Shown here: positions 13,069-34,466 of the stretch, piece by piece
Position numbering within the stretch: the stretch's first letter is position 1
Layout: every line of letters begins with the position of its first letter
NCBI GenBank assembly: GCA_001769035.1
Contig: MENF01000181.1
Span: 1-39,892 of the forward strand
Direction: 5' to 3'
Source: Bacteroidetes bacterium GWA2_32_17
GTDB taxonomy: Bacteria > Bacteroidota > Bacteroidia > Bacteroidales > GWA2-32-17
Length of the DNA: 39,892 nt
Translations under genes and position numbers: made by a program
Notes under the pieces: model-generated
What the model saw: only the letters and a program-made list of their open reading frames with translations
Told to the model about the DNA's origin: nothing
Database searches by the model: none

Positions 13069-14484
13069 ATGAAACGTTATTTTTTAACATTTGCAAGTGC
13101 GGTAGTTGGAGCAACTATTGCAATGCTGGCTTACAACAAAATTTTTCAAAAAAATGAATATGGTAATGATATTTATAATCCAATGCCTATTCATAAAGTA
13201 TCAAATAATAATTTAGAATCACCCGATTTTACTACTGCTGCCGAGCGTTCGGTAAATGCTGTGGTACATGTAAAAACAAAGATGCAGGGACAATATTATT
13301 CTCAAAATTCCATGTTTGATTTTTTCTTCGGGAATGGCTCACAACAATATCAACAACCTCAAATAATGCCAGTTGGTTCAGGGGTTTGTATTTCTTCCGA
13401 TGGGTATATTGTTACAAATAATCATGTTGTAAATAATTCCGATTATATAGAAGTGGTGTTAGATGATAAACGTTCATTTACTGCTAAATTAATTGGTACC
13501 GACGCAACAACTGATATAGCATTATTAAAAATTGATGCCGAAAATTTGCCATTTATTCCTTATGGCAATAGCGATAATTTAAAAATTGGTGAGTGGGTAT
13601 TGGCAGTTGGAAACCCATTTAATCTTACTTCTACTGTTACTGCAGGAATTGTAAGTGCCAAAGCACGAAATATTAATATATCGCAATATTCAATAGAATC
13701 GTTTATTCAAACTGATGCTGCTGTAAATCCAGGAAATAGTGGTGGTGCATTAGTTAATACAAGTGGTGAATTAGTCGGTATAAATACTGCAATTGCTTCA
13801 CAAACAGGAAATTATGTGGGATATTCGTTTGCCGTTCCAGTGAACATTGTTAAAAAAGTTGTTGCCGATTTGCTCGAATTTGGCGAAGTTCAACGTGCAT
13901 ATCTTGGAATAAACATTGCTTCGGTTGACCAAAAATTAGCTGCCGAAAAAGGAATTAGCGAAACTCAAGGTGTTTATATTGATGATGTTTACGATAATGG
14001 TGCTGCTGCAATTGCAGGAATTGTAAAGGGTGATGTAATTATTGGTGTAAACGAATTTATAGTTAAAGATATTCCTCAACTTCAGGGACAATTATCAAAA
14101 TACAGACCCGGCGATAAAATAAAATTAGGCATAATGCGTGGCGATAAAAAATTAATTGTTGATGTTGTTTTAAAAAACAGAGATAATGGTACTGCAGTTG
14201 TTAAGTCGGTTGATGCAACTATTTTGGGTGCAAAATTCCAGTCAATTTCGGGCGATGATAAACAACGTCTTCGTTTAAATTCGGGGTTAAAAGTTTCTGA
14301 CATTGGAAATGGAAAATTAAAAGCCGTTGGAATTAGAAATGGTTTTATAATAACAAGCATTAATCACCAATCAGTTACAAGCATTGACGAAGCAAAAAAT
14401 ATTATCGAACAAGCAAAAGGAGTTGTACTTGTCGAAGGAGTTTACACAAATGGAATGTATGCTTACTTTAGTTTTGCATTGTAA
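13069..14484 (+). CDS. degP: Periplasmic serine protease of the HtrA/DegP family
   Basis: This 471-aa quality-control protease degrades or refolds damaged envelope proteins. An N-terminal signal or anchor (about 1-25) precedes the trypsin-like domain with its full triad: His119 in TNNHVV, Asp149 in TTDIALL and Ser224 in NPGNSGGAL. Two PDZ domains follow (about 285-375 and 385-471), the first with the carboxylate-binding-loop-like RAYLGI. The segment near residues 75-90 (QNSMFDFFFGNGSQQYQQPQ) corresponds to the flexible LA loop of DegP. It is divergently oriented from dapF, and a MITE lies 2 bp after its stop, which could serve as its 3' end. Confidence 0.95.
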   Translation: MKRYFLTFASAVVGATIAMLAYNKIFQKNEYGNDIYNPMPIHKVSNNNLESPDFTTAAERSVNAVVHVKTKMQGQYYSQNSMFDFFFGNGSQQYQQPQIMPVGSGVCISSDGYIVTNNHVVNNSDYIEVVLDDKRSFTAKLIGTDATTDIALLKIDAENLPFIPYGNSDNLKIGEWVLAVGNPFNLTSTVTAGIVSAKARNINISQYSIESFIQTDAAVNPGNSGGALVNTSGELVGINTAIASQTGNYVGYSFAVPVNIVKKVVADLLEFGEVQRAYLGINIASVDQKLAAEKGISETQGVYIDDVYDNGAAAIAGIVKGDVIIGVNEFIVKDIPQLQGQLSKYRPGDKIKLGIMRGDKKLIVDVVLKNRDNGTAVVKSVDATILGAKFQSISGDDKQRLRLNSGLKVSDIGNGKLKAVGIRNGFIITSINHQSVTSIDEAKNIIEQAKGVVLVEGVYTNGMYAYFSFAL

Positions 14485-14486
14485 AT

Positions 14487-14631
14487 AGTGTCTGTCTATA
14501 AAGTCAGTGTCTGATTCATAATGTTCGAGTTCAAGGCATTCGAAGTATTAAAAAATCAGGAGTTTACTGATGTAAATGACTGTTTTTTAATACGAGAATA
14601 ACGCAAAAATCGGACATTATGGACAGACACT
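14487..14631. mobile_element. MITE-like element, copy 2 (145 bp)
   Basis: The ends are agtgtctgtctataa and the complement of agtgtctgtccataa, flanked by aaat on both sides (14483-14486 and 14632-14635). In the opposite orientation it aligns over its whole length with copy 1 at 550-693. There is no transposase gene inside. It lies 2 bp downstream of the degP stop codon. Confidence 0.75.
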
Positions 14632-14635
14632 AAAT

Positions 14636-14813
14636 AGTTTCTGTCTATAAAGCCGAGAAAAATGTAAATTTATGTCATATTTATAATTCTGAACTTATGA
14701 GTATAAGGTATAAAGGTATATGGTATAAGCAACTAGCCGTCATTCCTTATTCCCTTATACCATATACCTCTATACCCTATAAATTAAAAATATTGATATT
14801 ATGGACAAACACA
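14636..14813. mobile_element. MITE-like element, copy 3, in tandem with copy 2
   Basis: The left end agtttctgtctataa and the right end (complement of tgtgtttgtccataa) are diverged versions of the same terminal repeat. It shares the aaat junction with copy 2. Its interior differs and carries a strong inverted repeat: 14707-14729 against 14754-14776, 23 bp with one mismatch (arm ggtataaaggtatatggtat...). The element may therefore have been hit by another repeat. Confidence 0.55.
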
Positions 14814-19374: not shown

Positions 19375-19445
19375 GGTCTCTTGGCCGAGTGGCTAGGCAC
19401 CGGTCTGCAAAACCGATTACTCCGGTTCGAATCCGGAAGAGACCT
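19375..19445 (+). tRNA. tRNA-Cys (GCA)
   Basis: This is a 71-nt tRNA. The acceptor stem ggtctct pairs with agagacc. The anticodon loop ctgcaaa lies between cggt and accg and gives anticodon GCA. The T arm is ccggt-tcgaat-ccgg-like. The discriminator is T (U73) at 19445, the usual cysteine identity base. No CCA is encoded. An imperfect hairpin, aaaaaggt...acctttttaa (19449-19497), follows and may terminate transcription. Confidence 0.95.
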
Positions 19446-19497: not shown

Positions 19498-20354
19498 TTT
19501 TAACGGAAATTCTAAAATCCGATATCGGATTGCTTTTTCTTCGTTGAACTTCTCCCGATTATTCGCATACGCGTCAAACTAAAAAATATTTTTTAGCTAA
19601 AAAAACTTATTACACAAGAAATTAACCCTTCCAGGATTTAAAAAATCAAAAATCGTTAATCATTATTCGCTCTTCATTATTGATTATAAAAAAACACCGA
19701 ATAATTCACCCCGTTGAGTAGTATATCTAAATTGGCAATATTGCCCAAAACGATTATTCAACGGAGTGAACATTAAAGAGAGAATGATGAAGTCAGGGAA
19801 ATATACCCGTCAGACCGCTTGGAGCGGTCAGACGGGTACGTGGTATACTTTTGGTGAATATTAACAAAGGAAGGTCGGGGGTTTGAATGCTACATCTGAT
19901 GCGGGCTTTAGCCTATAAATTCAATCCTTAACTTGACGCGTATGCGAATAATCGGGATTAAATGCTCATTTATAATTAAACGGATTGAGTTTGCGAAAAA
20001 AATATTGAAACGGCGAATCGTACTGATGCTGTTTGAGTTTGCAAAATATTTAAAAAGAGACGGGGAATGGACGAAAGGGCGAAACGGTGAATTTTTTTTT
20101 GTTTCCCCGATTCCCCATATCTCCGGTTCGTTAAAATATTTTTGCAAACATGATTTTATTCAGTATGCAACAGTAAACTCAAATTTTAAAATCTTGTTTG
20201 ATTCAGAATATTCCATCCGATAGCTCGAATGCCTTGAATTTGATTTTTTCTTTAACAAACAAGAATTTTCATACAGGTAAGGGTAAAACCCTATTTATGA
20301 CAAAAAGGCATTAATTTCCTCTTTGTTGTTTGTACGAAAATTTAACAAATTTCT
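19498..20354. other. Non-coding patch of nested inverted repeats
   Basis: I see no credible gene in these 857 bp. Instead there are at least five inverted repeats. A perfect 25-bp pair lies at 19553-19577 and 19933-19957, enclosing 355 bp. A 13-bp pair with one mismatch (ttcaccccgttga, 19705-19717 / 19758-19770) sits around the palindrome ggcaatattgcc. A 14-bp pair with one mismatch lies at 19805-19818 / 19824-19837. A roughly 115-bp imperfect hairpin is bounded by gtttgcaaaatattt (from about 20028) and its complement near 20145. The palindrome atccgatatcggat is near 19517-19530. A 97-codon ORF at 19933-20223 begins inside the 25-bp repeat and is judged spurious. Confidence 0.6.
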
Positions 20355-21546: not shown

Positions 21547-21946
21547 AGCTTTGTTAAAAAAACATTTTTAAGAATTAATTTTGAAAACAATCATTAAAAA
21601 TAATGTAACTATTCAGTATAAGAATTATCACGCAAAGGCGCAGGGAACGCAAAGAAAATAGAAAAAGAAAATATAGAAAACACTCAAAATGATGAAATAC
21701 GAAATAGAATTGTTTATAGTATTTACAAATTGTTAGTTCGCAAATAAAAAAAACATTATACCTTGGTCTGTGGCTCACAGACCTTGAAAAATGTTTTTAA
21801 AAATGGTCTGTGTGCCACAGACCAAGGAAAAAGCGGGCATTGCGTCACTTCGATAAGCTCAGTGCATCACTTTGCGAAAATAATATTTGCGAGAAATATG
21901 GTGCGAGTTAAACGAAAAATCATATTAACTTTGACAAGATTAGAGG
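21547..21946. other. Gene-free gap with repeats and a strong hairpin
   Basis: This 400-bp gap has no gene. It contains cgcaaaggcgcagggaacgc (about 21632-21651), a common Bacteroidetes intergenic repeat word, the hairpin at 21761-21827, and cttcgataagctcagtgc (21848-21865), another frequent repeat word. Confidence 0.5.
21761..21827. repeat. Inverted repeat ccttggtctgtgg...
   Basis: Left half ccttggtctgtggctcacagacc and right half ggtctgtgtgccacagaccaagg form a 23-bp inverted repeat with a few mismatches around a 21-nt A/T-rich loop. Each half is itself palindromic (ggtctgtg...cacagacc), so a cruciform or multi-branched RNA is possible. Confidence 0.75.
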
Positions 21947-25656: not shown

Positions 25657-26748
25657 ATGACAAGTCAATATATTATTAATAAATACAATAACAAAGTTTA
25701 CATTTCTTTGAAAGAGGGATTAGACATTTATAAAAACATGCCGCTTACCGATTTAATGTTTGCTGCAAATGAAATTCGCGAAAGTTTACATAACAAAAAA
25801 ATAGTTACATGGCAAATTGATAGAAACGTAAATATTTCAAACATTTGTTTTGTGCAATGCGAATTTTGCAACTTCTGCAGAAAAAAAGATTCTACAGACG
25901 CTCACACAACATCAATTGAAGAATACCGAATTAAAATAAAAGAACTTTTTGAGTTAGGTGGCGACCAACTTTTATTACAGGGAGGGATGAATCCGGCACT
26001 TGGATTAAATTTTTATGTTGCTCTATTTAAAACTTTAAAACAAGAATTTCCAAAATTAAAACTTCATGCACTTGGTCCGCCCGAGATTGCATATCTCGCA
26101 AAAAAAGAAAAATTAACTTATTTGCAAGTTCTTGAAACACTTATAAATGTTGGATTAGACAGCTTACCAGGTGCAGGTGCTGAAATATTAAACAACCGCG
26201 TAAGAACCAAATTATCAAAAGGAAAATGTTCAGTAGAAGAATGGCTCAATGTAATGCGTGCTGCTCATAAAATGGGACTATACACTTCGGCAACAATGAT
26301 GTTTGGTCATATTGAAACTATTGAAGAACGTTTGCAACATTTAATTTACATTCGTGATGTGCAAAGCGAAAAACCCAAAAATGCTCCCGGTTTTAATGCT
26401 TTTATTCCTTGGCCTGTTCAGTTACAAGACACAAAACTACAAAATAAAATTAGCATACAAAATGTTACAGGTTCCGAATATTTACGACTGCTTGCAATAA
26501 GTCGAATAATGTTACCAAACATTCCAAACATACAGGCATCGTGGTTAACAGTTGGTAAAAATATTGCACAAATAGCTCTTCATGCAGGAGCTAATGATTT
26601 AGGCTCTATAATGATTGAGGAAAATGTTGTATCGGCAGCCGGTGCAACATTTACAATTACTGCCAACGAAATGAAACAATTAATTATTGATGCAGGATTT
26701 GAACCAAAACAGAGAAATCAGAAGTATCAGATAGTAGAAAGTTTATAA
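25657..26748 (+). CDS. mqnC: Cyclic dehypoxanthine futalosine synthase
   Basis: This is a 363-aa radical SAM enzyme of the futalosine route to menaquinone. MqnC cyclises dehypoxanthine futalosine. The 4Fe-4S cysteines are Cys64, Cys68 and Cys71 (CFVQCEFC). Further MqnC words are QLLLQGGMNP, GLDSLPGAGAEIL, TSATMMFGHIET, FIPWPVQ, and NIPNIQASW followed by GSIMIEENVVSAAGA. The closely related MqnE lacks several of these, so MqnC is the better call. It shows that the organism likely makes menaquinone by the futalosine pathway. No other mqn gene lies nearby. The following 298 bp contain no gene. Confidence 0.93.
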   Translation: MTSQYIINKYNNKVYISLKEGLDIYKNMPLTDLMFAANEIRESLHNKKIVTWQIDRNVNISNICFVQCEFCNFCRKKDSTDAHTTSIEEYRIKIKELFELGGDQLLLQGGMNPALGLNFYVALFKTLKQEFPKLKLHALGPPEIAYLAKKEKLTYLQVLETLINVGLDSLPGAGAEILNNRVRTKLSKGKCSVEEWLNVMRAAHKMGLYTSATMMFGHIETIEERLQHLIYIRDVQSEKPKNAPGFNAFIPWPVQLQDTKLQNKISIQNVTGSEYLRLLAISRIMLPNIPNIQASWLTVGKNIAQIALHAGANDLGSIMIEENVVSAAGATFTITANEMKQLIIDAGFEPKQRNQKYQIVESL

Positions 26749-27022
26749 AGTGGTAAAGAACTTAAATAATTTGATTCTATTTTGTTAATTTTACACTGAA
26801 ATTGAAATCCTTTTAATAATTAATCTTAACAAATTAGGAAAAACAATAAATTAATAAAAATAGAACGCCAACTCCAGTGAACACTTAATACAGTTTTTAC
26901 TGAATCTATTAAAAAGGATTTAAAAAGAAATATTAAAAAACTTTTTTAAAAGTCATTTAATGTAAAAGAAATAGCAGGCGAAGGGCAATTAAAAATGTTT
27001 TAGATATAATTAATTTTTAAAC

Positions 27023-27030
27023 TATTTTTG
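27023..27030 (+). promoter_or_regulatory. -7 box for the first ATPase gene
   Basis: TATTTTTG matches TAnnTTTG, 16 bp before the ATG at 27047. This suggests the ATPase/Toprim-like pair has its own promoter. Confidence 0.5.
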
Positions 27031-27046
27031 TAAAAACATAATATTT

Positions 27047-28024
27047 ATGATACAACAGTTAAGTATTAAAAACTTTAAATCTGTAAAAGATTTGCAGGTA
27101 TCTTGTAAAAAACTTAATGTTTTTATAGGTGAGCCAAACAGCGGAAAAAGTAATATTATTGAAGCTTTATCACTACAAAGCCAAAATGCAATTGGTGGAG
27201 TTTTAAATAAAGAAATGTTTCGTTACAAAACTATTGGAAATTTGTTTTACGATTTCAATATTAACACACCAATAGAAGTAAATACCGGTGAAATTTGCAC
27301 AGTGTTAAAATATGCTATTCGTGAAAATGGCGTAGTTGAAAATCTATTCGATTATTTTTTTGATACAAACAAAGAAAAAGAAAAACCTGAGAGTATTTCT
27401 CATGAAGGGATAGTTTTGCAACGTGGTAATGTGGGAAGTACAAACGTTCATTTTTATGAATATAAGAGGTTGTATAAATTTCAAAATTCATTTATGCCTC
27501 ATTTGTCGGTTCCTTTTGGCGAAAATATCCCTACACTTTTACTTTCTAATCCAGATTTAAAAAAATGGGTTTCTGAATTGTTTCGCTCATTTGGCTATAA
27601 ATTAATGCTTAAACCGGTAGAAGGAGATATGAGCATGACAAAAGAAGTAAACGAAGAATTATATGAATATCCGTTTTTCAGTATTTCCGAAACTTTACAA
27701 AGGTTAATTTTTTATTCGCTTGCAATAAAGAGCAACAATAACTGTATATTGTTATTTGACGAACCCGAAAGCAATATGTTTCCATTTTACATAAAAGATA
27801 TTGCCGAACGAATAACCGAAGATAAAACTAACCAGTTTTTTATTTCAACACACAATCCATATATGTTAGGTTCCTTACTCGAAAAGAGTAATAAAAACGA
27901 TATTGCTGTTTATATTGTAAAAATGGAGAATTATCAAACGGTTGCAAAATTATGCACTCAAAAACAAATTGAAGAACTTATTTCGTTGGGTAGTGGTTTG
28001 TTTTTTAATCTCGATAATTTGTAG
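27047..28024 (+). CDS. AAA/OLD-like ATPase of a putative defence pair
   Basis: This 325-aa ATPase has an SMC/RecF/OLD-type nucleotide-binding fold. The N-terminal IKNFKSVKDLQV strand leads to Walker A GEPNSGKS (28-35). Later come a SISETLQRLIFYSL signature-like segment, Walker B ILLFDEPESNMFP (about 235-247) and the switch-histidine motif FFISTHNPYM (about 265-274). There is no fused Toprim or nuclease domain, and the protein is shorter than a classic OLD nuclease. The next gene starts 2 bp after the stop and probably provides the nuclease part. Such ATPases usually serve phage defence or DNA repair. Context here (a Septu pair 0.9 kb downstream) favours defence. Confidence 0.85.
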   Translation: MIQQLSIKNFKSVKDLQVSCKKLNVFIGEPNSGKSNIIEALSLQSQNAIGGVLNKEMFRYKTIGNLFYDFNINTPIEVNTGEICTVLKYAIRENGVVENLFDYFFDTNKEKEKPESISHEGIVLQRGNVGSTNVHFYEYKRLYKFQNSFMPHLSVPFGENIPTLLLSNPDLKKWVSELFRSFGYKLMLKPVEGDMSMTKEVNEELYEYPFFSISETLQRLIFYSLAIKSNNNCILLFDEPESNMFPFYIKDIAERITEDKTNQFFISTHNPYMLGSLLEKSNKNDIAVYIVKMENYQTVAKLCTQKQIEELISLGSGLFFNLDNL

Positions 28025-28026
28025 AA

Positions 28027-28530
28027 ATGTTAAGTTCCAAAAAAATTATCGTTGAATGTAAACCCGACGAAATTTTGGCAAAATCATTAGGTTTAGCAAA
28101 AAAAGAAATAGCACATCAGCCAAATAAAGGTGAAGTTTGTAATTTGTTAAAGAAAACAGAAATTTCTTTAGCAATAGTTGACGAAGACCCTAATTCCAGT
28201 CAACCAAAATATTTAAGTAATTTTACTATAGTAGAAGACAAACACGATGTTATTAATCTTCATTCAAAATCAGAAAATAAAACTATTTTAGTTCTCAAGC
28301 CGCGCTTGGAAGAGGGGATATTAAAACGATGCAAAGAATCGGCAGTTAATCCCAAAAAGTATTTTTTACCATCTAACAACAAACAATTTAAAGATACAAT
28401 TAACTATCATTTATTAAATTTCAGCAATCTTCTTGAAGAATTAATTAAAAAAAATGATGGTGGATTAGTTTATTTAAAAGAACAAATAGGAATAGTAAAA
28501 AGTAAACGCAATAAAAATAATAGAAAATAA
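28027..28530 (+). CDS. Small Toprim-like partner protein
   Basis: This 167-aa protein has no signal or membrane segment. The N-terminal KKIIVECKPDE places Glu10 (with Asp14) at the end of a hydrophobic strand, and LAIVDEDPNS places Asp52 and Asp54 at the end of a second strand. This E...DxD layout is what a Toprim catalytic site looks like, as in the VEGxxDE and DxD motifs of OLD nucleases. A charged C-terminal tail ends in SKRNKNNRK. Directly following the ATPase by 2 bp, it is likely the nuclease or RNA-cleaving half of a split OLD-like module. The Toprim assignment rests on motif reading only. It could instead be an unrelated partner fold. Confidence 0.6.
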   Translation: MLSSKKIIVECKPDEILAKSLGLAKKEIAHQPNKGEVCNLLKKTEISLAIVDEDPNSSQPKYLSNFTIVEDKHDVINLHSKSENKTILVLKPRLEEGILKRCKESAVNPKKYFLPSNNKQFKDTINYHLLNFSNLLEELIKKNDGGLVYLKEQIGIVKSKRNKNNRK

Positions 28531-28887
28531 AATTGCTAATGAAAGCCAGTTGAAAATGTTTTGATTTGTTTTATATAAAGTTGTTCATTATATTACTTTT
28601 ACTTTGGTATTGAAAATGTATGAAGATTCCAAAATACTAAACTAACAATTATAAATATTCATGATTTTAGAAAAGCATAGACACGGTTTTAGTTACGATA
28701 GCTAATACACATTTGTAAGTCCCACAATGCCGATTAAACTTGCCAACTCTTACAAAAAAGCATGATTTTGTCTTTCTCAAACATGTTTATTGATTATAAT
28801 TATTAAGTATGCCATTGATTTATAAAATATTATTTATAAAGAGAAAATTAATATAAAACACTAACTTTGCAAAAGATATTGTAAAAA
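28531..28887. other. Gap between the two defence modules
   Basis: These 357 bp hold no ORF of note and no clear terminator. The words cacatttgtaagtccca and ttgccaactcttac appear, but I cannot assign them. The last 30 bp contain the promoter box of the Septu-type operon. Confidence 0.4.
28862..28869 (+). promoter_or_regulatory. -7 box for the Septu-type operon
   Basis: TAACTTTG matches TAnnTTTG, 18 bp before the ptuA-like ATG. It is the only good box I noticed ahead of the four-gene operon 28888-32666. Confidence 0.6.
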
Positions 28888-30162
28888 ATGAAAATCAAAA
28901 AAATAATAATTGAAAATATTAGGTGTTTCAAGAACCTTGAAATTGATCTTTCAAATAAAGAAGGAATAAGTGATTGGGTTGTATTTCTTGGCAATAATGG
29001 TGTTGGCAAAACCACCTTAATGAGAAGTATTGCACTATGCTTATGTGAAGAATCCGGTGCAGCCGGGCTACTTGATGAATTACATGGTGATTGGATACGA
29101 AAAGAAGATACAAATAAAAAGGCTAAAATACGGATTGAATTTGAAAAACTAAACGGTTACAGTAAGACCCCATCCATTGAAACACAAATAAAACTATCAA
29201 AGTTTGGAGAAGTTGAAGTAACTCAAACAACAGAGCCAAAAAGTTCTAAAATTTGGAACGAACTTTTTGTATGTGCATATGGCGCAAACAGACGCTCATA
29301 TGGAACGGTTTCTTATTCTGAATATACCGTTGTGGATGCGGTTTACTCGTTGTTCAATTATGAATCAGTATTACAAAATGTAGAACTCAATATAAGAAGA
29401 CTGCAACTTGAAATTGATTTAAATGAATTATTTAAAAAATTAGAAGATATTCTACTGCTTGAAAAAAAATCCATTAAATTAGAAAGAAATGGAATTTCCA
29501 TTAAAGGGCCTTGGGGTAGTTATATCCCGATGGGAGCATTATCTGACGGTTATGCGGCAACTATTGCATGGATTATGGATATGTATGGGTGGAAAATGCT
29601 TTATGAGAAAAAAATGAAAGATGTCGAAATTAACGGAATAGTAATATTAGATGAAATTGAACAACATTTACATCCTTTATGGCAGAAAGAAATAGTTAAT
29701 AGACTTTCGAGGCAATTCAAAAATGTTCAATTTTTTGTTTCAACTCATTCTCCAATAGTTGCAATTAATGCTCTAAAGACAATGCATGATGATCCTAATT
29801 CGAAACTTTATCATATAGATTGGAATAATGAAATTAAAGAGGCTAATGCATCTATATCTGTAGTACAAGAGCCTATCAATGATTTAGAATATAATCAGCT
29901 ATTAGAGTCAGAAGCCTTTGGACACATATTAAATACTAATTCGAAAGTTGATAAATTATTGAAGGAAATGTCTGAATTAGCAAGTATTGATAAACCAACC
30001 CAGAAACAAAAGTTAATTTTGGAAACCATTAAGAAAGAATTAAAACCATTGATGTTTCCTGAAGGTAAAACCCTAATCGAAAGAGAGGTGGAGCGAGAAT
30101 ATTATAAAGAATTAGAAGCAAAAGCCGATTATCTTTCCAAAATTTTATCCAAGAAAAAATGA
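28888..30162 (+). CDS. ptuA: Septu-type ATPase PtuA
   Basis: In this 424-aa ATPase, Walker A is GNNGVGKT (35-42). A GALSDGYAATIAWIMDM segment corresponds to the ABC signature region. Walker B is IVILDEIEQHLHP (about 251-263), and the histidine switch is FFVSTHSPIVAIN (about 283-295). The C-terminal 100 residues are a charged helical region. It overlaps the next gene, an HNH nuclease, by 4 bp. ATPase plus TIGR02646-like HNH is the definition of the Septu anti-phage system (PtuA/PtuB), where PtuA forms an oligomeric ATPase scaffold and PtuB cuts DNA. I name it on that pairing and not on ATPase sequence alone. No reverse transcriptase is present, so this is not the retron-linked form. Confidence 0.8.
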   Translation: MKIKKIIIENIRCFKNLEIDLSNKEGISDWVVFLGNNGVGKTTLMRSIALCLCEESGAAGLLDELHGDWIRKEDTNKKAKIRIEFEKLNGYSKTPSIETQIKLSKFGEVEVTQTTEPKSSKIWNELFVCAYGANRRSYGTVSYSEYTVVDAVYSLFNYESVLQNVELNIRRLQLEIDLNELFKKLEDILLLEKKSIKLERNGISIKGPWGSYIPMGALSDGYAATIAWIMDMYGWKMLYEKKMKDVEINGIVILDEIEQHLHPLWQKEIVNRLSRQFKNVQFFVSTHSPIVAINALKTMHDDPNSKLYHIDWNNEIKEANASISVVQEPINDLEYNQLLESEAFGHILNTNSKVDKLLKEMSELASIDKPTQKQKLILETIKKELKPLMFPEGKTLIEREVEREYYKELEAKADYLSKILSKKK

Positions 30163-30929
30163 TTAGTATTGAAAGAGGCGCTTGCCCAGACAAACTTGAC
30201 ACAACCCGAAAAAAAATTGCTGCAAATGATTATCAACATGATACTGTAGTAAGTGCTCTTTTAGTTATGCAACATAACAAATGTTGTTATTGCGAAACAG
30301 ATATACTTAAAGTAGGTGCAACAGCAAGATGGGTGGACCATTTTATAGCCAAAACAGATGTTTCTTTTAAGGATTGTGATGGAAAAACCAATTGGAAATT
30401 AGCAAATGCATGGAGTAATCTTTTGATGTCATGCAGTACTTGTAACAGAAGTAAAGGCACAGAAGAACCTTTCGATTCTAAAACAGGGAAAAGAAGATTA
30501 ATTGACCCAAGTGATCCTAAAATTGATCCTGAAAACCATATTGAGTTTATGATTGAAGATGTATTTATAGTTTATAAATCACGAAATGGAAGTACATTAG
30601 GAAAAAATACGATAGAGAACTTGAAGCTAAAGGCTCGAAATGATATTTATTCTCTTCTTCGAAAAAGGAAAGCCGAAATTGACAGTATTTTTAATGACTT
30701 GGTAAATGCTTTAACCGAAAATAATTTGATTATGGCCAAATCTAAGCAAAATGATTTGAGAAAAATGACGAGCGCGCACCAGCCTCATGCTTCTTTTTGC
30801 AGGAAATACATCATTCAGGTAGCACAAAAATTCAACAATGATAATTTGAAGAAAATAAATAAATACTATGGTTTAAAAATAGAGCCTTTAGAAATTAATA
30901 TTGCTTCAGGTTTTCAAAAAATTGTCTGA
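30159..30929 (+). CDS. ptuB: Septu-type HNH nuclease PtuB
   Basis: This 256-aa protein has a zinc-supported HNH core. CCYCE (42-46) forms the first Cys pair, WVDHFIAK (58-65) carries the catalytic His61, NAWSNLLMSCSTCNRSKG (83-100) gives the Asn and the second Cys pair (92, 95), and Lys99 follows in the NxxK part. This matches the TIGR02646/PtuB family known from Septu and from the effector of retron Ec78. The C-terminal 110 residues are helical and probably contact PtuA. The start overlaps the ptuA stop (ATGA), ensuring coupled translation. All expected catalytic residues are present, so the nuclease should be active. Confidence 0.82.
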   Translation: MISIERGACPDKLDTTRKKIAANDYQHDTVVSALLVMQHNKCCYCETDILKVGATARWVDHFIAKTDVSFKDCDGKTNWKLANAWSNLLMSCSTCNRSKGTEEPFDSKTGKRRLIDPSDPKIDPENHIEFMIEDVFIVYKSRNGSTLGKNTIENLKLKARNDIYSLLRKRKAEIDSIFNDLVNALTENNLIMAKSKQNDLRKMTSAHQPHASFCRKYIIQVAQKFNNDNLKKINKYYGLKIEPLEINIASGFQKIV

Positions 30930-30945
30930 TTTAAAAACAAAGAAA

Positions 30946-31314
30946 ATGCCTTACGGTAAAGAACTAATTTTAGATATTCATAAATGTGATACAACCACTT
31001 TTAATCGCAAATCTCTAAAAAAATATTTTGTGAAAATTTGCAAATTAATTGACATGGAAAGGGCGAAACTATGCTGGTGGGATGACCATGGAGTACCTGA
31101 AGATGAAAAACAAACCTTTGCTCATACGAAGGGAACAACTGCTGTGCAATTTATATTAACAAGTAATATAACTATTCACACACTTGATATTCTGAAAAAT
31201 GTTTATATTAACATTTTTTCCTGTAAGGAATTTGATGAAATTGCAGCAGAAAAATTCACTAAAGAATGGTTTAAAGGAGAAGTAGTAAATTCATTAACAA
31301 TAAATAGAATATAA
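30946..31314 (+). CDS. S-adenosylmethionine decarboxylase-related protein
   Basis: I choose the ATG at 30946 (MPYGKELILDIHKCD, 122 aa). An earlier ATG at 30901 would overlap ptuB and adds residues unlike the family. The AdoMetDC fold is recognisable from GKELILDIHKCD, TAVQFILTSNITIHTL and NVYINIFSCKEFD. In true class 1 enzymes, the pyruvoyl serine lies in an Glu-Ser-His motif (ESHIxxHT). Here the same place reads T72-S73-N74-I-T-I-H-T, so the serine is kept while the Glu and the processing His are lost. The proton-donor Cys93 (FSC) is present. Self-cleavage and decarboxylation are therefore doubtful. It starts 16 bp after ptuB and ends 2 bp before the DUF3326 gene. Confidence 0.75.
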   Translation: MPYGKELILDIHKCDTTTFNRKSLKKYFVKICKLIDMERAKLCWWDDHGVPEDEKQTFAHTKGTTAVQFILTSNITIHTLDILKNVYINIFSCKEFDEIAAEKFTKEWFKGEVVNSLTINRI

Positions 31315-31316
31315 TT

Positions 31317-32666
31317 ATGAAACTGATAGAAAAAGAATTTTTTATACCCTATGATGCTAATAGTAGCACAAGTTTAATTGATTATATAGCTGCTAAAGTA
31401 AAAGAAGAATTATCACCTTCTGAAATTCCAGTTAGGTTCGTAATTACAAATACAAATGATGCTGGCTACCTTTGTGAGTTAGGTGTTTTAATAAATATTG
31501 ATAATATTGAAAACCAAAATGAAAGATCTATATTTTCATTCAAAAAAAGAGAACATGAAAATACAGAAAAATTCAATGTAGTATTATTAATTCCAACAGG
31601 AATAGGTGCTGAAATTGGTGGTCATTGTGGTGATGGCAATGTTGTAGCCAGATTAATAGCATCAGCTTGTGATATATTAATAACTCATCCAAATGTTGTT
31701 AACGCATCCGATATTAACGAAATGACCGAAAATACTCTCTATGTGGAAGGAAGCATTATTACCCGATTATTAATGGGTCAAATCGGACTGCAAAAGTCCC
31801 GTTCTAACAGAATACTAATGTTGATGGATAAACACAAAGATAAATTGTTTAACGATGAAATCGTTAATGCAGTATCTTCAGCAAGGATTTCTCTTGGTAT
31901 TGATTGTGATGTATATGAAATGGATAATATTATTAATAGTGAATCCATGTATTCAAAATCAGGCAGGGCTATTGGGAAAATCGAAAAACTTGAGTACTTA
32001 TTTGAAATTATAGATAAATATTACGAAAAATATGATGCAATAGGCTTATCTACATTTATTAATGTTCCTGAATACTATCATAAAAATTATTTTAGCAATG
32101 ATGATTTGATAAACCCTTGGGGGGGAATTGAAGCGATGCTAACACATAGTGTTGCTGAAAAATACAATATTCCTTGTGCTCATTCACCTATGATGGCATC
32201 ACGTGAAATAATGGAGTTAGAAGTGGGAATTGTTGACCCACGTAAAGCTCCGGAATCAGCTTCCCTTACTTATTTACATTGCATACTTAAGGGATTACAT
32301 AAAAGTCCAAGAATAACTTCACCAGATAAGGGAATAAATATTGAAGACATTTCTTGTCTGATTATCCCTTATGGATGTATCGGATTACCAACACTTTCAG
32401 CATTAGAAAATGGAATACCGGTAATTGCAGTAAAAGAAAACAGAAACCGGATGGAAAACAAATTAGAAGAATTTCCATTTAAGCATAACAAACTATTTAT
32501 AGTTGAAAATTATTTGGAAGCTGTGGGTGTTATTAATGCAATCAAAAGTGGAGTTAATATTGACACCATAAAACGGCCTATTGCATACACAAATATTATA
32601 AACGCGAAAGATGATGGCTACCGGGTTTACACATCAGAAATTATATCTAAAAATCAAAGATATTAG
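31317..32666 (+). CDS. DUF3326 protein
   Basis: This is a 449-aa cytoplasmic protein. The middle contains the DUF3326 hallmark VVLLIPTGIGAEIGGHCGDG (about 97-116) followed by ARLIASACDILITHPNVVNASDINEM and LYVEGSIITRLLMG. The C-terminal third has PYGCIGLPTLSALENGIPVI followed by AVKENRNRM, which looks like a nucleotide- or cofactor-binding loop. The family is known mainly from cyanobacteria and has no established function as far as I know. It follows the AdoMetDC-like gene by 2 bp, so the two are very likely co-translated and may act on the same metabolite. Linkage to ptuAB is the novel point. There is no clear terminator after it. Confidence 0.8.
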   Translation: MKLIEKEFFIPYDANSSTSLIDYIAAKVKEELSPSEIPVRFVITNTNDAGYLCELGVLINIDNIENQNERSIFSFKKREHENTEKFNVVLLIPTGIGAEIGGHCGDGNVVARLIASACDILITHPNVVNASDINEMTENTLYVEGSIITRLLMGQIGLQKSRSNRILMLMDKHKDKLFNDEIVNAVSSARISLGIDCDVYEMDNIINSESMYSKSGRAIGKIEKLEYLFEIIDKYYEKYDAIGLSTFINVPEYYHKNYFSNDDLINPWGGIEAMLTHSVAEKYNIPCAHSPMMASREIMELEVGIVDPRKAPESASLTYLHCILKGLHKSPRITSPDKGINIEDISCLIIPYGCIGLPTLSALENGIPVIAVKENRNRMENKLEEFPFKHNKLFIVENYLEAVGVINAIKSGVNIDTIKRPIAYTNIINAKDDGYRVYTSEIISKNQRY

Positions 32667-33090
32667 AAAATAAAACCACCTATTAAACATATTTTATTAT
32701 TCGAAAATAGAAATACTTTTCCCTATACCAAACCTTCCATTTTTCTTTATTTTCCACTTTGTTACAACTAAATAAATATTTTTATTCTTGCTTCTATTTC
32801 ACAATATTTATACATATACTAATATTGATGACTATTAAAATATATTTTTAACAATATAATGTTAAGAAATTGTTAAATCAAAGTACGACAGGCAAATAGC
32901 TATGTTAAACAATAAATTTATTTATTTAGACAAAATCATATATTGCACAAATAGAGCAACATAAGCGAATAGCCATTAAAATGTTAATAATACTGTTGAA
33001 AAGTAGATTGGTGAAAAGCCAAAGAGTGATGTAACTTTGTGAAAAATAAATTTTTATTAAGTTCTGGTTTTAATATCAAAATTACCACAT
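32667..33090. other. Gene-free gap after the operon
   Basis: This gap has no ORF worth calling. A plus-strand promoter-like pair, attg (33007-33010) with 21 bp to TAACTTTG (33032-33039), points at the candidate RNA region from the other side, but I see no gene for it to drive. Confidence 0.4.
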
Positions 33091-33118
33091 AAAAAAAACA
33101 GCCTTTTTGTAGGCTGTT
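33091..33118 (-). terminator. Terminator of the candidate RNA
   Basis: Read on the minus strand, aacagcctacaaaaaggctgtt forms an 8-bp stem with a 6-nt loop and is followed by eight T residues (plus-strand A tract 33091-33098). Confidence 0.85.
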
Positions 33119-33257
33119 AACTTGTAAATCGGCCGATTCATTAATCAGTTAAGACAGAAAAAGCGTAAGTAAATACGCAGATTATGTTTATTCGTCTCAT
33201 TAGCGAAAAAACATAATCTCACTGCCGGGGAGGGAGAGTTACAGCTCTCCTTTCTTC
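33091..33257 (-). ncRNA. Candidate free-standing structured RNA
   Basis: On the minus strand a perfect promoter (see 33263-33293) is followed by an RNA of about 165 nt with no ORF. In transcript order the hairpins are ggagag/ctctcc (33250-33245 / 33238-33233), agattatgttt/aaacataatct (11 bp, 33219-33209 / 33189-33179) and gcgta/tacgc (33178-33174 / 33167-33163). The palindrome atcggccgat follows (33137-33128), then the terminator stem aacagcct/aggctgtt with a T8 tract ending at 33091. No minus-strand gene follows, so it is not a leader. It could be a 6S-like, antisense or novel sRNA. The family is not recognised. Confidence 0.65.
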
Positions 33258-33262
33258 ATTTA

Positions 33263-33293
33263 CAAAATTAGTTAAATTGATATTTAATACAAA
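33263..33293 (-). promoter_or_regulatory. Consensus promoter of the candidate RNA
   Basis: On the minus strand TTTG (33293-33290), 19 bp, then TAATTTTG (33270-33263). This is a full match to the Bacteroidetes promoter consensus, and transcription should begin near 33257. Confidence 0.75.
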
Positions 33294-33523
33294 CACTTTT
33301 TCTATTTCTTCCTTTCTTTTTATTAACACTTATTCAAAGAATAATAATATCACTTTATACACTTTTTTAATTTATGTATTAATTTGATTTTGCTTGATTT
33401 GTCTTATAAAACAAAGAACAGAATATTTATAAAGAATTTACTTAATCTATTTCTGTTAATTAACAATTTGAAAGCTTCTTAATTCCCAACTTCAAACTTT
33501 CAACCTCAAACTTTCAACTTTTT

Positions 33524-34435
33524 TTACTTCAACGCAAAAGTAGCTGTTCCAATTAGTTTGCCTTCGCTAAAAAGGTCAACTGTATAAACGCCTTCAGTAA
33601 GGTCACCGGTATTAGCCCAATAAATGCACATTTCAACATCTTTGTTTTCGTAATCAATTTCGCGTTTTGCAGAAAATAATATTTGATTTCCTTCAAAGTC
33701 GAACATTGTGCCATCGGGGTTAGGTAAAATTTCTTTATCGGGACGGGCAATGCGTAAATAAATAATACGATTACCGGGTTTAGCAATAGAATTTTCGGTT
33801 AATGTAAAACATACTTTTATTTTTGTAACTTTTTTGGCTTTTGTTACTTCTTTTGCTTTATCGTTTACAGGTGTTGGCGAAATGCTTATTGCACGTAAAG
33901 TCATTGCTACATCAACCTTTTGCGAAAGGTCATCAGTTTTTACCTGAAGAGTTTCTTTTTCGGTTTTTACTTTCTGAAAATCAGTTTTTACCTGTTTGTT
34001 TTCTTCTGCGAGCAATTTGTTACGAGTATTAAGAGAGTCAATTTGAACAATATAATTCCGCATTATTTCGCGAAGTGTTCCTAATTCTTTTTTGTATTGA
34101 CCAATTTGATATGAGTTTGCATTTTTAAGTCCTTTAATTTCATCGAGCATTTCTTTAATTTTTGTTTTTTCCTGCTCAAGTTCGCTAGATATTTGTGAGT
34201 TGTCGGTTTTTAAAGAATTATATTGAGCTAACATATCGGTATATTCTTTTTCTAAATTCGCCTTTTCGGCTCCGGTATCTTTAAGTTCTACTTCAACAAA
34301 AATCTTTTCTTTTCGAACAGTATAAAATTTGTATGCAAAGTATCCGTTAGAAACCAACAAAATGAGAATAACTATAAAATATAAAAGGTCAAATTTTTTT
34401 CGTATTTCGGTCGAAGGAATTGTTTGTTCGCTCAT
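33524..34435 (-). CDS. Single-pass membrane coiled-coil protein
   Basis: I start at 34435 (MSEQTIPSTEIRK, 303 aa). The ATG at 34459 overlaps the -7 box and would precede the transcription start. A TM helix (about residues 15-37, LLYFIVILILLVSNGYFAYKF) is followed by a long coiled coil (about 45-180, many Glu/Lys/Leu heptads). A C-terminal beta domain (about 205-303) has IKVCFTLTEN, RIIYLRIARPDKEILP and a final YTVDLFSEGKLIGTATFAL. The layout suggests an inner-membrane protein with a periplasmic coiled coil and a C-terminal Ig-like or binding domain. The same pattern is common in Bacteroidetes but has no known function. It is monocistronic. Confidence 0.8.
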   Translation of the reverse strand: MSEQTIPSTEIRKKFDLLYFIVILILLVSNGYFAYKFYTVRKEKIFVEVELKDTGAEKANLEKEYTDMLAQYNSLKTDNSQISSELEQEKTKIKEMLDEIKGLKNANSYQIGQYKKELGTLREIMRNYIVQIDSLNTRNKLLAEENKQVKTDFQKVKTEKETLQVKTDDLSQKVDVAMTLRAISISPTPVNDKAKEVTKAKKVTKIKVCFTLTENSIAKPGNRIIYLRIARPDKEILPNPDGTMFDFEGNQILFSAKREIDYENKDVEMCIYWANTGDLTEGVYTVDLFSEGKLIGTATFALK

Positions 34436-34458
34436 AATTTTAATTTCGCAATTTTTCA

Positions 34459-34466
34459 CAAATATA
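34459..34466 (-). promoter_or_regulatory. -7 box deciding the start of the coiled-coil gene
   Basis: Minus strand TATATTTG matches TAnnTTTG. Since the first ATG (34459-34457) falls at the box itself, translation should begin at the next one, 34435. Confidence 0.55.

What the first reader, a model, noticed from the sequence alone, without database searches (positions are those of the whole stretch)
33091..33293. Free-standing minus-strand RNA with perfect promoter, stems and terminator
TTTG-N19-TAATTTTG, about 165 nt with three clean hairpins (one 11 bp), a palindrome and a T8 terminator form a complete transcription unit with no ORF and no downstream minus-strand gene. It is not tmRNA, RNase P RNA or SRP RNA by the motifs I know. 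A 6S-type or novel sRNA is possible, as is a regulator of the nearby defence genes.
Basis: partly seen in the sequence, partly recalled or inferred. Interest (0 to 1): 0.65.

Follow-up and report, generated by a model that had tools for sequence, protein, structure and literature searches.

The report
Orphan small RNA beside defence genes
A short stretch of this bacterial genome looks like a gene for a small non-coding RNA of an ordinary kind; no convincing relative turned up in the searches made, so its job remains unknown.

Summary
On the minus strand a Bacteroidota-type promoter motif (33293-33263) precedes about 168 nt that fold unusually well (z -6.6), carry no ATG ORF of 20 aa or more, and end in an intrinsic terminator with T8 (33118-33091). 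The promoter motif alone is weak evidence (7 in the window, 5.6 expected); promoter plus strong terminator occurs once, against 0.007 per shuffled window. No Rfam family matches credibly. The RNA is single copy. No convincing relative was found by blastn or a one-sequence covariance model in draws of 10-395 genomes, nor beside 80 DUF3326 genes, so covariation cannot be tested. The RNA lies in 6.8 kb (AAA ATPase, PtuA/PtuB, SAM decarboxylase-like, DUF3326) between mqnC and a coiled-coil gene that are directly convergent in 4 of 8 relatives, so it came with, or arose in, acquired DNA. Best reading: a lineage-specific intergenic sRNA, probably base-pairing through an exposed CUCCCC. 6S RNA is not supported. 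Regulation of the neighbouring defence genes has no support: of 27 gene starts tested for pairing, PtuA and AAA are the two weakest, and PtuB, third by energy, is no better than its shuffles. Ordinary kind, new orphan member.

The parts
33290..33293 (-). -33 box TTTG
   Evidence: sequence; motif scan
33263..33270 (-). -7 box TAATTTTG, 19 nt from the -33 box
   Evidence: consensus from a passage of PMC7366714
33091..33258 (-). candidate small RNA, about 168 nt; start placed by the -12 to -5 position of the -7 box
   Evidence: fold z -6.6; spacing from a passage of PMC9723704; start site inferred
33233..33250 (-). hairpin 1, GGAGAG-CUGUAA-CUCUCC
   Evidence: pair probability 0.99
33227..33232 (-). 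exposed CUCCCC, possible pairing seed
   Evidence: unpaired probability above 0.7; function inferred
33153..33226 (-). closing stem GGCAG/CUGUC around two hairpins
   Evidence: mean pair probability 0.76
33179..33219 (-). long hairpin, 17 bp, 11 of them unbroken
   Evidence: inverted repeat I5
33163..33178 (-). 5-bp hairpin GCGUA/UACGC
33118..33147 (-). hairpin with palindrome AATCGGCCGATT (33127-33138), weakly predicted
   Evidence: pair probabilities 0.55 and 0.26
33091..33118 (-). intrinsic terminator, stem plus T8
26749..33523 (.). acquired stretch between mqnC and the coiled-coil gene that contains the RNA; exact edges unknown
   Evidence: mqnC and coiled-coil gene directly convergent in 4 of 8 relatives' loci; matches of the relatives' intergenic DNA beyond the gene ends are chance-level; DUF3326 in 1 of 10 family genomes, this one

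Best explanation
It is the gene of a lineage-specific intergenic small RNA. Shown by sequence: promoter motif, structured non-coding body, strong terminator, single copy, setting in acquired DNA. Inferred: transcription by the main sigma factor from about 33258, termination at about 33091, and action in trans by base pairing of the exposed C-rich stretch (CUCCCC) or loop 1 with mRNAs encoded elsewhere in the genome.
For: Promoter plus terminator unit 1 found, 0.007 expected. The strict terminator scan gives three sites in 39.9 kb; the other two lie inside long ORFs. Fold z -6.6. GC 37% in a 20-22.5% surround. Single copy in a genome estimated 95% complete. A TTTG/TAnnTTTG match also ends 12 nt before tRNA-Cys at 19375. 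Passages seen: B. thetaiotaomicron has 49 high-confidence intergenic sRNAs (start site plus terminator), 27 of them strain-specific; its intergenic sRNAs have a GC content of 35% and 76% have the canonical promoter (PMC7366714); independent RNAs of F. psychrophilum have a median length of 176 (PMC9723704).
Against: No transcript data. No homologue, so no covariation and no sign of selection on the structure. The promoter motif alone is not enriched in the window (7 against 5.6). Targets are a guess; the target scan covered 27 genes of this window only.
Confidence: 0.6

Rival explanations
1. It is the 3' untranslated end and terminator of the coiled-coil gene's mRNA (33524-34459, same strand), perhaps released by processing.
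For: Same strand; about 270 nt between the stop codon and the RNA start; no terminator listed in between.
Against: In the 8 relatives' loci no RNA model match lies near the same gene, and the intergenic DNA read there differs. A promoter motif sits at the right distance.
Confidence: 0.2
2. It is a working part of the neighbouring defence operon, for example an RNA that restrains PtuA/PtuB.
For: It ends 0.4 kb from the operon end, inside the same acquired stretch. PtuAB acts on tRNA-Tyr in retron-Eco7 and in one Septu (passages), and loop 1 reads CUGUAA, most of the recalled tRNA-Tyr anticodon loop. Changing the anticodon of a phage tRNA-Tyr abolished its rescue from Eco7.
Against: No model match beside 80 DUF3326 loci, including 7 with the full operon. 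Convergent with the operon and apparently transcribed apart from it. Such a loop arises in 0.35% of shuffles and at 4 other places in this window. The cut is reported in the variable loop. PtuAB of retron-Eco4 seems not to target tRNA, and another Septu is reported to target nicked DNA.
Confidence: 0.07
3. It is a leader or attenuator left behind after its downstream gene was lost.
For: Promoter, structured RNA and terminator in the order of a leader. The downstream 420 nt hold no convincing gene.
Against: No credible riboswitch or leader family in Rfam. No relative found that still has a downstream gene.
Confidence: 0.08
4. It is a repeat or the end of a mobile element that happens to fold.
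For: Several other strongly folding intergenic stretches of this window are palindromic, and one is repeated. An AT-rich inverted pair, 22 nt at 86%, lies near both ends of the acquired stretch (26840-26861, 33050-33071).
Against: Single copy in the genome and the window. No recombinase among the ten proteins scanned from 25.7 to 39.6 kb. The inverted pair is AT-rich and one of 7 pairs listed.
Confidence: 0.05

Closest known systems
Intergenic sRNAs of Bacteroidota (for example GibS of B. thetaiotaomicron, 145 nt; passages of PMC7366714)
   Same: TTTG/TAnnTTTG promoter pattern, intrinsic terminator, similar length and GC, often strain-specific
   Different: No sequence relation tested or shown. 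GibS has a long single-stranded 5' region; this RNA has a hairpin near its 5' end and only short exposed stretches. Target unknown
6S RNA / 6S-Flavo (RF01685)
   Same: Similar size class (recalled)
   Different: No match; string of hairpins instead of a rod with a central bubble
Type I-A retron ncRNA (works with PtuAB effectors)
   Same: A structured RNA in a locus with PtuA/PtuB relatives
   Different: No reverse transcriptase among the 20 window proteins scanned; RNA on the other strand beyond the far end of the operon
MicX sRNA (RF01808), lowest Rfam E-value (0.083)
   Same: Weak overall layout
   Different: 18.9 bits against a gathering score of 75, taken as chance

Membership tests
Bacteroidota intergenic sRNA (kind) | Canonical promoter motif upstream | tested here: met
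   the motif alone is not rare
Bacteroidota intergenic sRNA (kind) | Intrinsic terminator at the 3' end | tested here: met
Bacteroidota intergenic sRNA (kind) | Non-coding | tested here: met
   only GTG ORFs of 25 and 36 aa overlap it on its strand at a 20-aa limit
Bacteroidota intergenic sRNA (kind) | Independent transcript with its own 5' end | not testable with these tools
   needs RNA-seq
6S RNA | Match to a 6S covariance model | tested here: not met
   no 6S family among the 10 matches up to E 10
6S RNA | Long rod with central bubble | tested here: not met
   multi-hairpin MFE with unpaired ends and linkers; a prediction only
Retron ncRNA (type I-A) | Reverse transcriptase gene adjacent | tested here: not met
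   none in the Pfam scans of 20 window proteins, of which ten lie at 25.7-39.6 kb
Type III antitoxin RNA | Tandem repeats in the RNA, upstream of a toxin gene | tested here: not met
   no tandem array within 33091-33258; no downstream gene
tmRNA / RNase P / SRP RNA | Rfam or ARAGORN match | tested here: not met

The most novel reading that the evidence does not exclude
The RNA takes the place of the retron msDNA as the restraint of a PtuA/PtuB effector that lacks a reverse transcriptase: a free-standing decoy whose first loop (CUGUAA) imitates the tRNA-Tyr anticodon loop and holds the nuclease inactive until a phage disturbs it.
Probability: 0.03. Interest if true: 0.75.

Novelty: new member of a known kind. 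Interest (0 to 1): 0.22.

Why it matters
As an orphan sRNA it adds one more unexplained candidate in a phylum where few sRNAs have known targets (recalled). It would matter much more if it proved to be tied to the PtuAB operon, which the evidence here does not favour.

Tried and rejected
Rfam at gathering and at E up to 10: nothing credible. Distant blastn in plasmids and phages: none. Blastn in genomes: all 10 family genomes reach E <= 1, but apart from the RNA itself only with pieces of up to 44 nt; 13 of 295 order genomes at E <= 0.01, own included, the others pieces of at most 42 nt; 6 of 395 phylum genomes at E <= 0.001, own included, the others pieces of at most 56 nt: two on the terminator, two on the palindrome region, one in the middle. 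The RNA model on ten of these loci gives at most 21.1 bits; the two alignments shown rest mainly on the terminator.

One-sequence covariance model R1: 6 of 393 order genomes at E <= 0.1, own included, best other 26.8 bits beside a gene that looks like enolase by eye; 6 of 31 relatives at E <= 1, own included, best other 21.5 bits, which I read and rejected: no promoter or terminator seen by eye, fold z -2.7; the other weak matches were not all inspected. 1 of 395 class genomes at E <= 0.01, the own one. 0 matches in 80 DUF3326 loci and in three short DUF3326 loci; best 11.1 bits in three longer DUF3326 stretches with filters off. The window's complementary strand scores 25.2 bits, so scores in the 20s mean little. 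The genome draws overlap and cannot be added; in the two large draws the tool scored at most 7 candidates per genome in the rows shown.

Exact RNA patterns: 0 in genome contigs for one, 0 in viral contigs for three. 6S-Flavo in the own genome: none, but the 14 controls gave none either, so this says nothing. Pairing with start regions of 27 window genes: strongest a 150-aa ORF, MMPL and PtuB (z -2.3, -2.5, -0.7); weakest AAA and PtuA. The method ignores competing structure. The tRNA-Tyr of this genome or genus was sought in 40 stretches and not found, nor in the loci held, so its anticodon loop is recalled. Rfam on four own-genome stretches: none. One paper search for sRNAs in defence islands gave nothing used (listing).

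In one search I printed the wrong side of the gene for L042; corrected.

Full report
What is there. Read on the minus strand, 33293-33263 is TTTG-N19-TAATTTTG, the main-promoter pattern of Bacteroidota (consensus seen in a passage of PMC7366714). From the reported position of that box (-12 to -5, passage of PMC9723704) the RNA should start near 33258; its first hairpin begins at 33250 and it ends in a stem followed by T8 at 33098-33091. The fold of the 172-nt stretch is -54.4 kcal/mol with z -6.6, 0 of 200 shuffles as good; without the terminator z is -4.9. Four hairpins, the terminator included, are firmly predicted (mean pair probability 0.96-0.99), the closing stem fairly (0.76), the palindrome hairpin weakly (0.55 and 0.26).

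More than chance? Each part alone is modest. The promoter pattern occurs 7 times in the window against 5.6 in shuffles, and in 2-3% of shuffles of this intergenic stretch. Good folds also occur elsewhere in the window: 11 of 994 scanned segments have a lower z, 9 of them at three palindromic places. The combination is rare: promoter followed by a strong terminator once here, in 2 of 300 shuffled windows. The GC content of 37% stands out of flanks of 20% and 22.5%.

Setting. The region holds mqnC (25657-26748, +), an AAA ATPase and a 167-aa protein, PtuA- and PtuB-like proteins (PADLOC E 2.6e-53 and 1.2e-25), a SAM decarboxylase-like protein and DUF3326, then the RNA (-), then a coiled-coil gene (-). 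In 4 of 8 relatives' loci mqnC lies directly convergent with the coiled-coil gene (in one of the four only about the last 42 residues of mqnC are on the contig); in the other 4 mqnC is not within the stretch held. In the two of the same genus about 165 nt separate the two genes. DUF3326 is in 1 of 10 family genomes, this one. The matches of the relatives' intergenic DNA to 26.7-33.6 kb are at the gene ends or chance-level. So the RNA lies in acquired DNA; whether it came with the defence genes or arose at the junction cannot be told. The phylum is inferred: the genome G536, called same phylum, has a contig of the same length and DUF3326 identity as a record titled Bacteroidetes.

Relatives of the RNA. 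None convincing: Rfam, phages and plasmids, blastn in 10, 295 and 395 genomes, covariance model in 393, 31 and 395 genomes, exact patterns in genome and viral collections. It is single copy in its genome. The sub-threshold matches are told in Tried and rejected. A one-sequence model has limited reach, so 'no relative found' is not 'none exists'.

Link to the defence operon. Of 80 DUF3326 loci from genome contigs (the best 80 of 181), 44 have the SAM decarboxylase-like gene next to DUF3326 and 7 have PtuA, PtuB, SAM decarboxylase-like and DUF3326 in that order; only 55 of the 80 hold more than 3 kb upstream, so 7 is a lower bound. The 80 give no R1 match up to E 10, and six loci of the same phylum (L080, L081, L089, L105, L117, L125) show no promoter-terminator unit like this one. 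Predicted pairing with the operon's start regions is unremarkable: PtuB is third of 27 by energy but z -0.7, PtuA is last. These operons do not appear to need the RNA.

Function. The most likely reading is an ordinary lineage-specific intergenic sRNA. In B. thetaiotaomicron 49 intergenic sRNAs have start site plus terminator, and 27 of these are strain-specific (passages of PMC7366714); independent RNAs of F. psychrophilum have a median length of 176 (passages of PMC9723704). The exposed CUCCCC between hairpin 1 and the closing stem is the natural pairing seed; this is inference. The main rival is the 3' end of the coiled-coil mRNA, which only a transcript map can exclude.

Bold reading. PtuAB of retron-Eco7 depletes tRNA-Tyr, and msDNA with reverse transcriptase is its antitoxin (passages of PMC11555353); a Septu PtuAB cuts tRNA-Tyr in the variable loop (passages of PMC13096335). 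Loop 1 of this RNA is CUGUAA, six letters of the recalled tRNA-Tyr anticodon loop. Against it: such a loop appears in 0.35% of shuffles and at 4 other places in the window; the idea was formed after seeing the sequence; other PtuAB are reported not to act on tRNA-Tyr (Eco4; a Septu on nicked DNA); and the RNA was not found beside sister operons. I give it 3%.

Noticed in passing
window 28888-32666 (+): PtuA-PtuB-SAM decarboxylase-like-DUF3326 operon; the same four genes are collinear in 7 of 80 DUF3326 loci, among them records titled Bacteroidetes, Planctomycetota and Proteobacteria. A possible extended Septu variant; DUF3326 was found in two papers of the library, judged from the search listing alone.
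   Followed up: partly
L062 2250-3622, L063 7630-8987: The SAM decarboxylase-like and DUF3326 pair also occurs in viral contigs, among genes that look phage-like by eye.
   Followed up: partly
L080 4329-8876: In one genome of the same phylum the operon has a protein resembling a PLP-dependent decarboxylase (by eye, not searched) in place of the SAM decarboxylase-like one.
   Followed up: no
window 14484-14639 and 542-696: A strongly folding palindromic stretch with a second, inverted copy 86% identical over 156 nt.
   Followed up: no
window 21756-21832 and 19553-19957: Further long inverted repeats with very low folding energies.
   Followed up: no
window 27047-28530: AAA ATPase (best PADLOC match AbiLi, E 5.4e-19) followed by a 167-aa protein without family match, a possible second defence pair in the same acquired stretch.
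   Followed up: no
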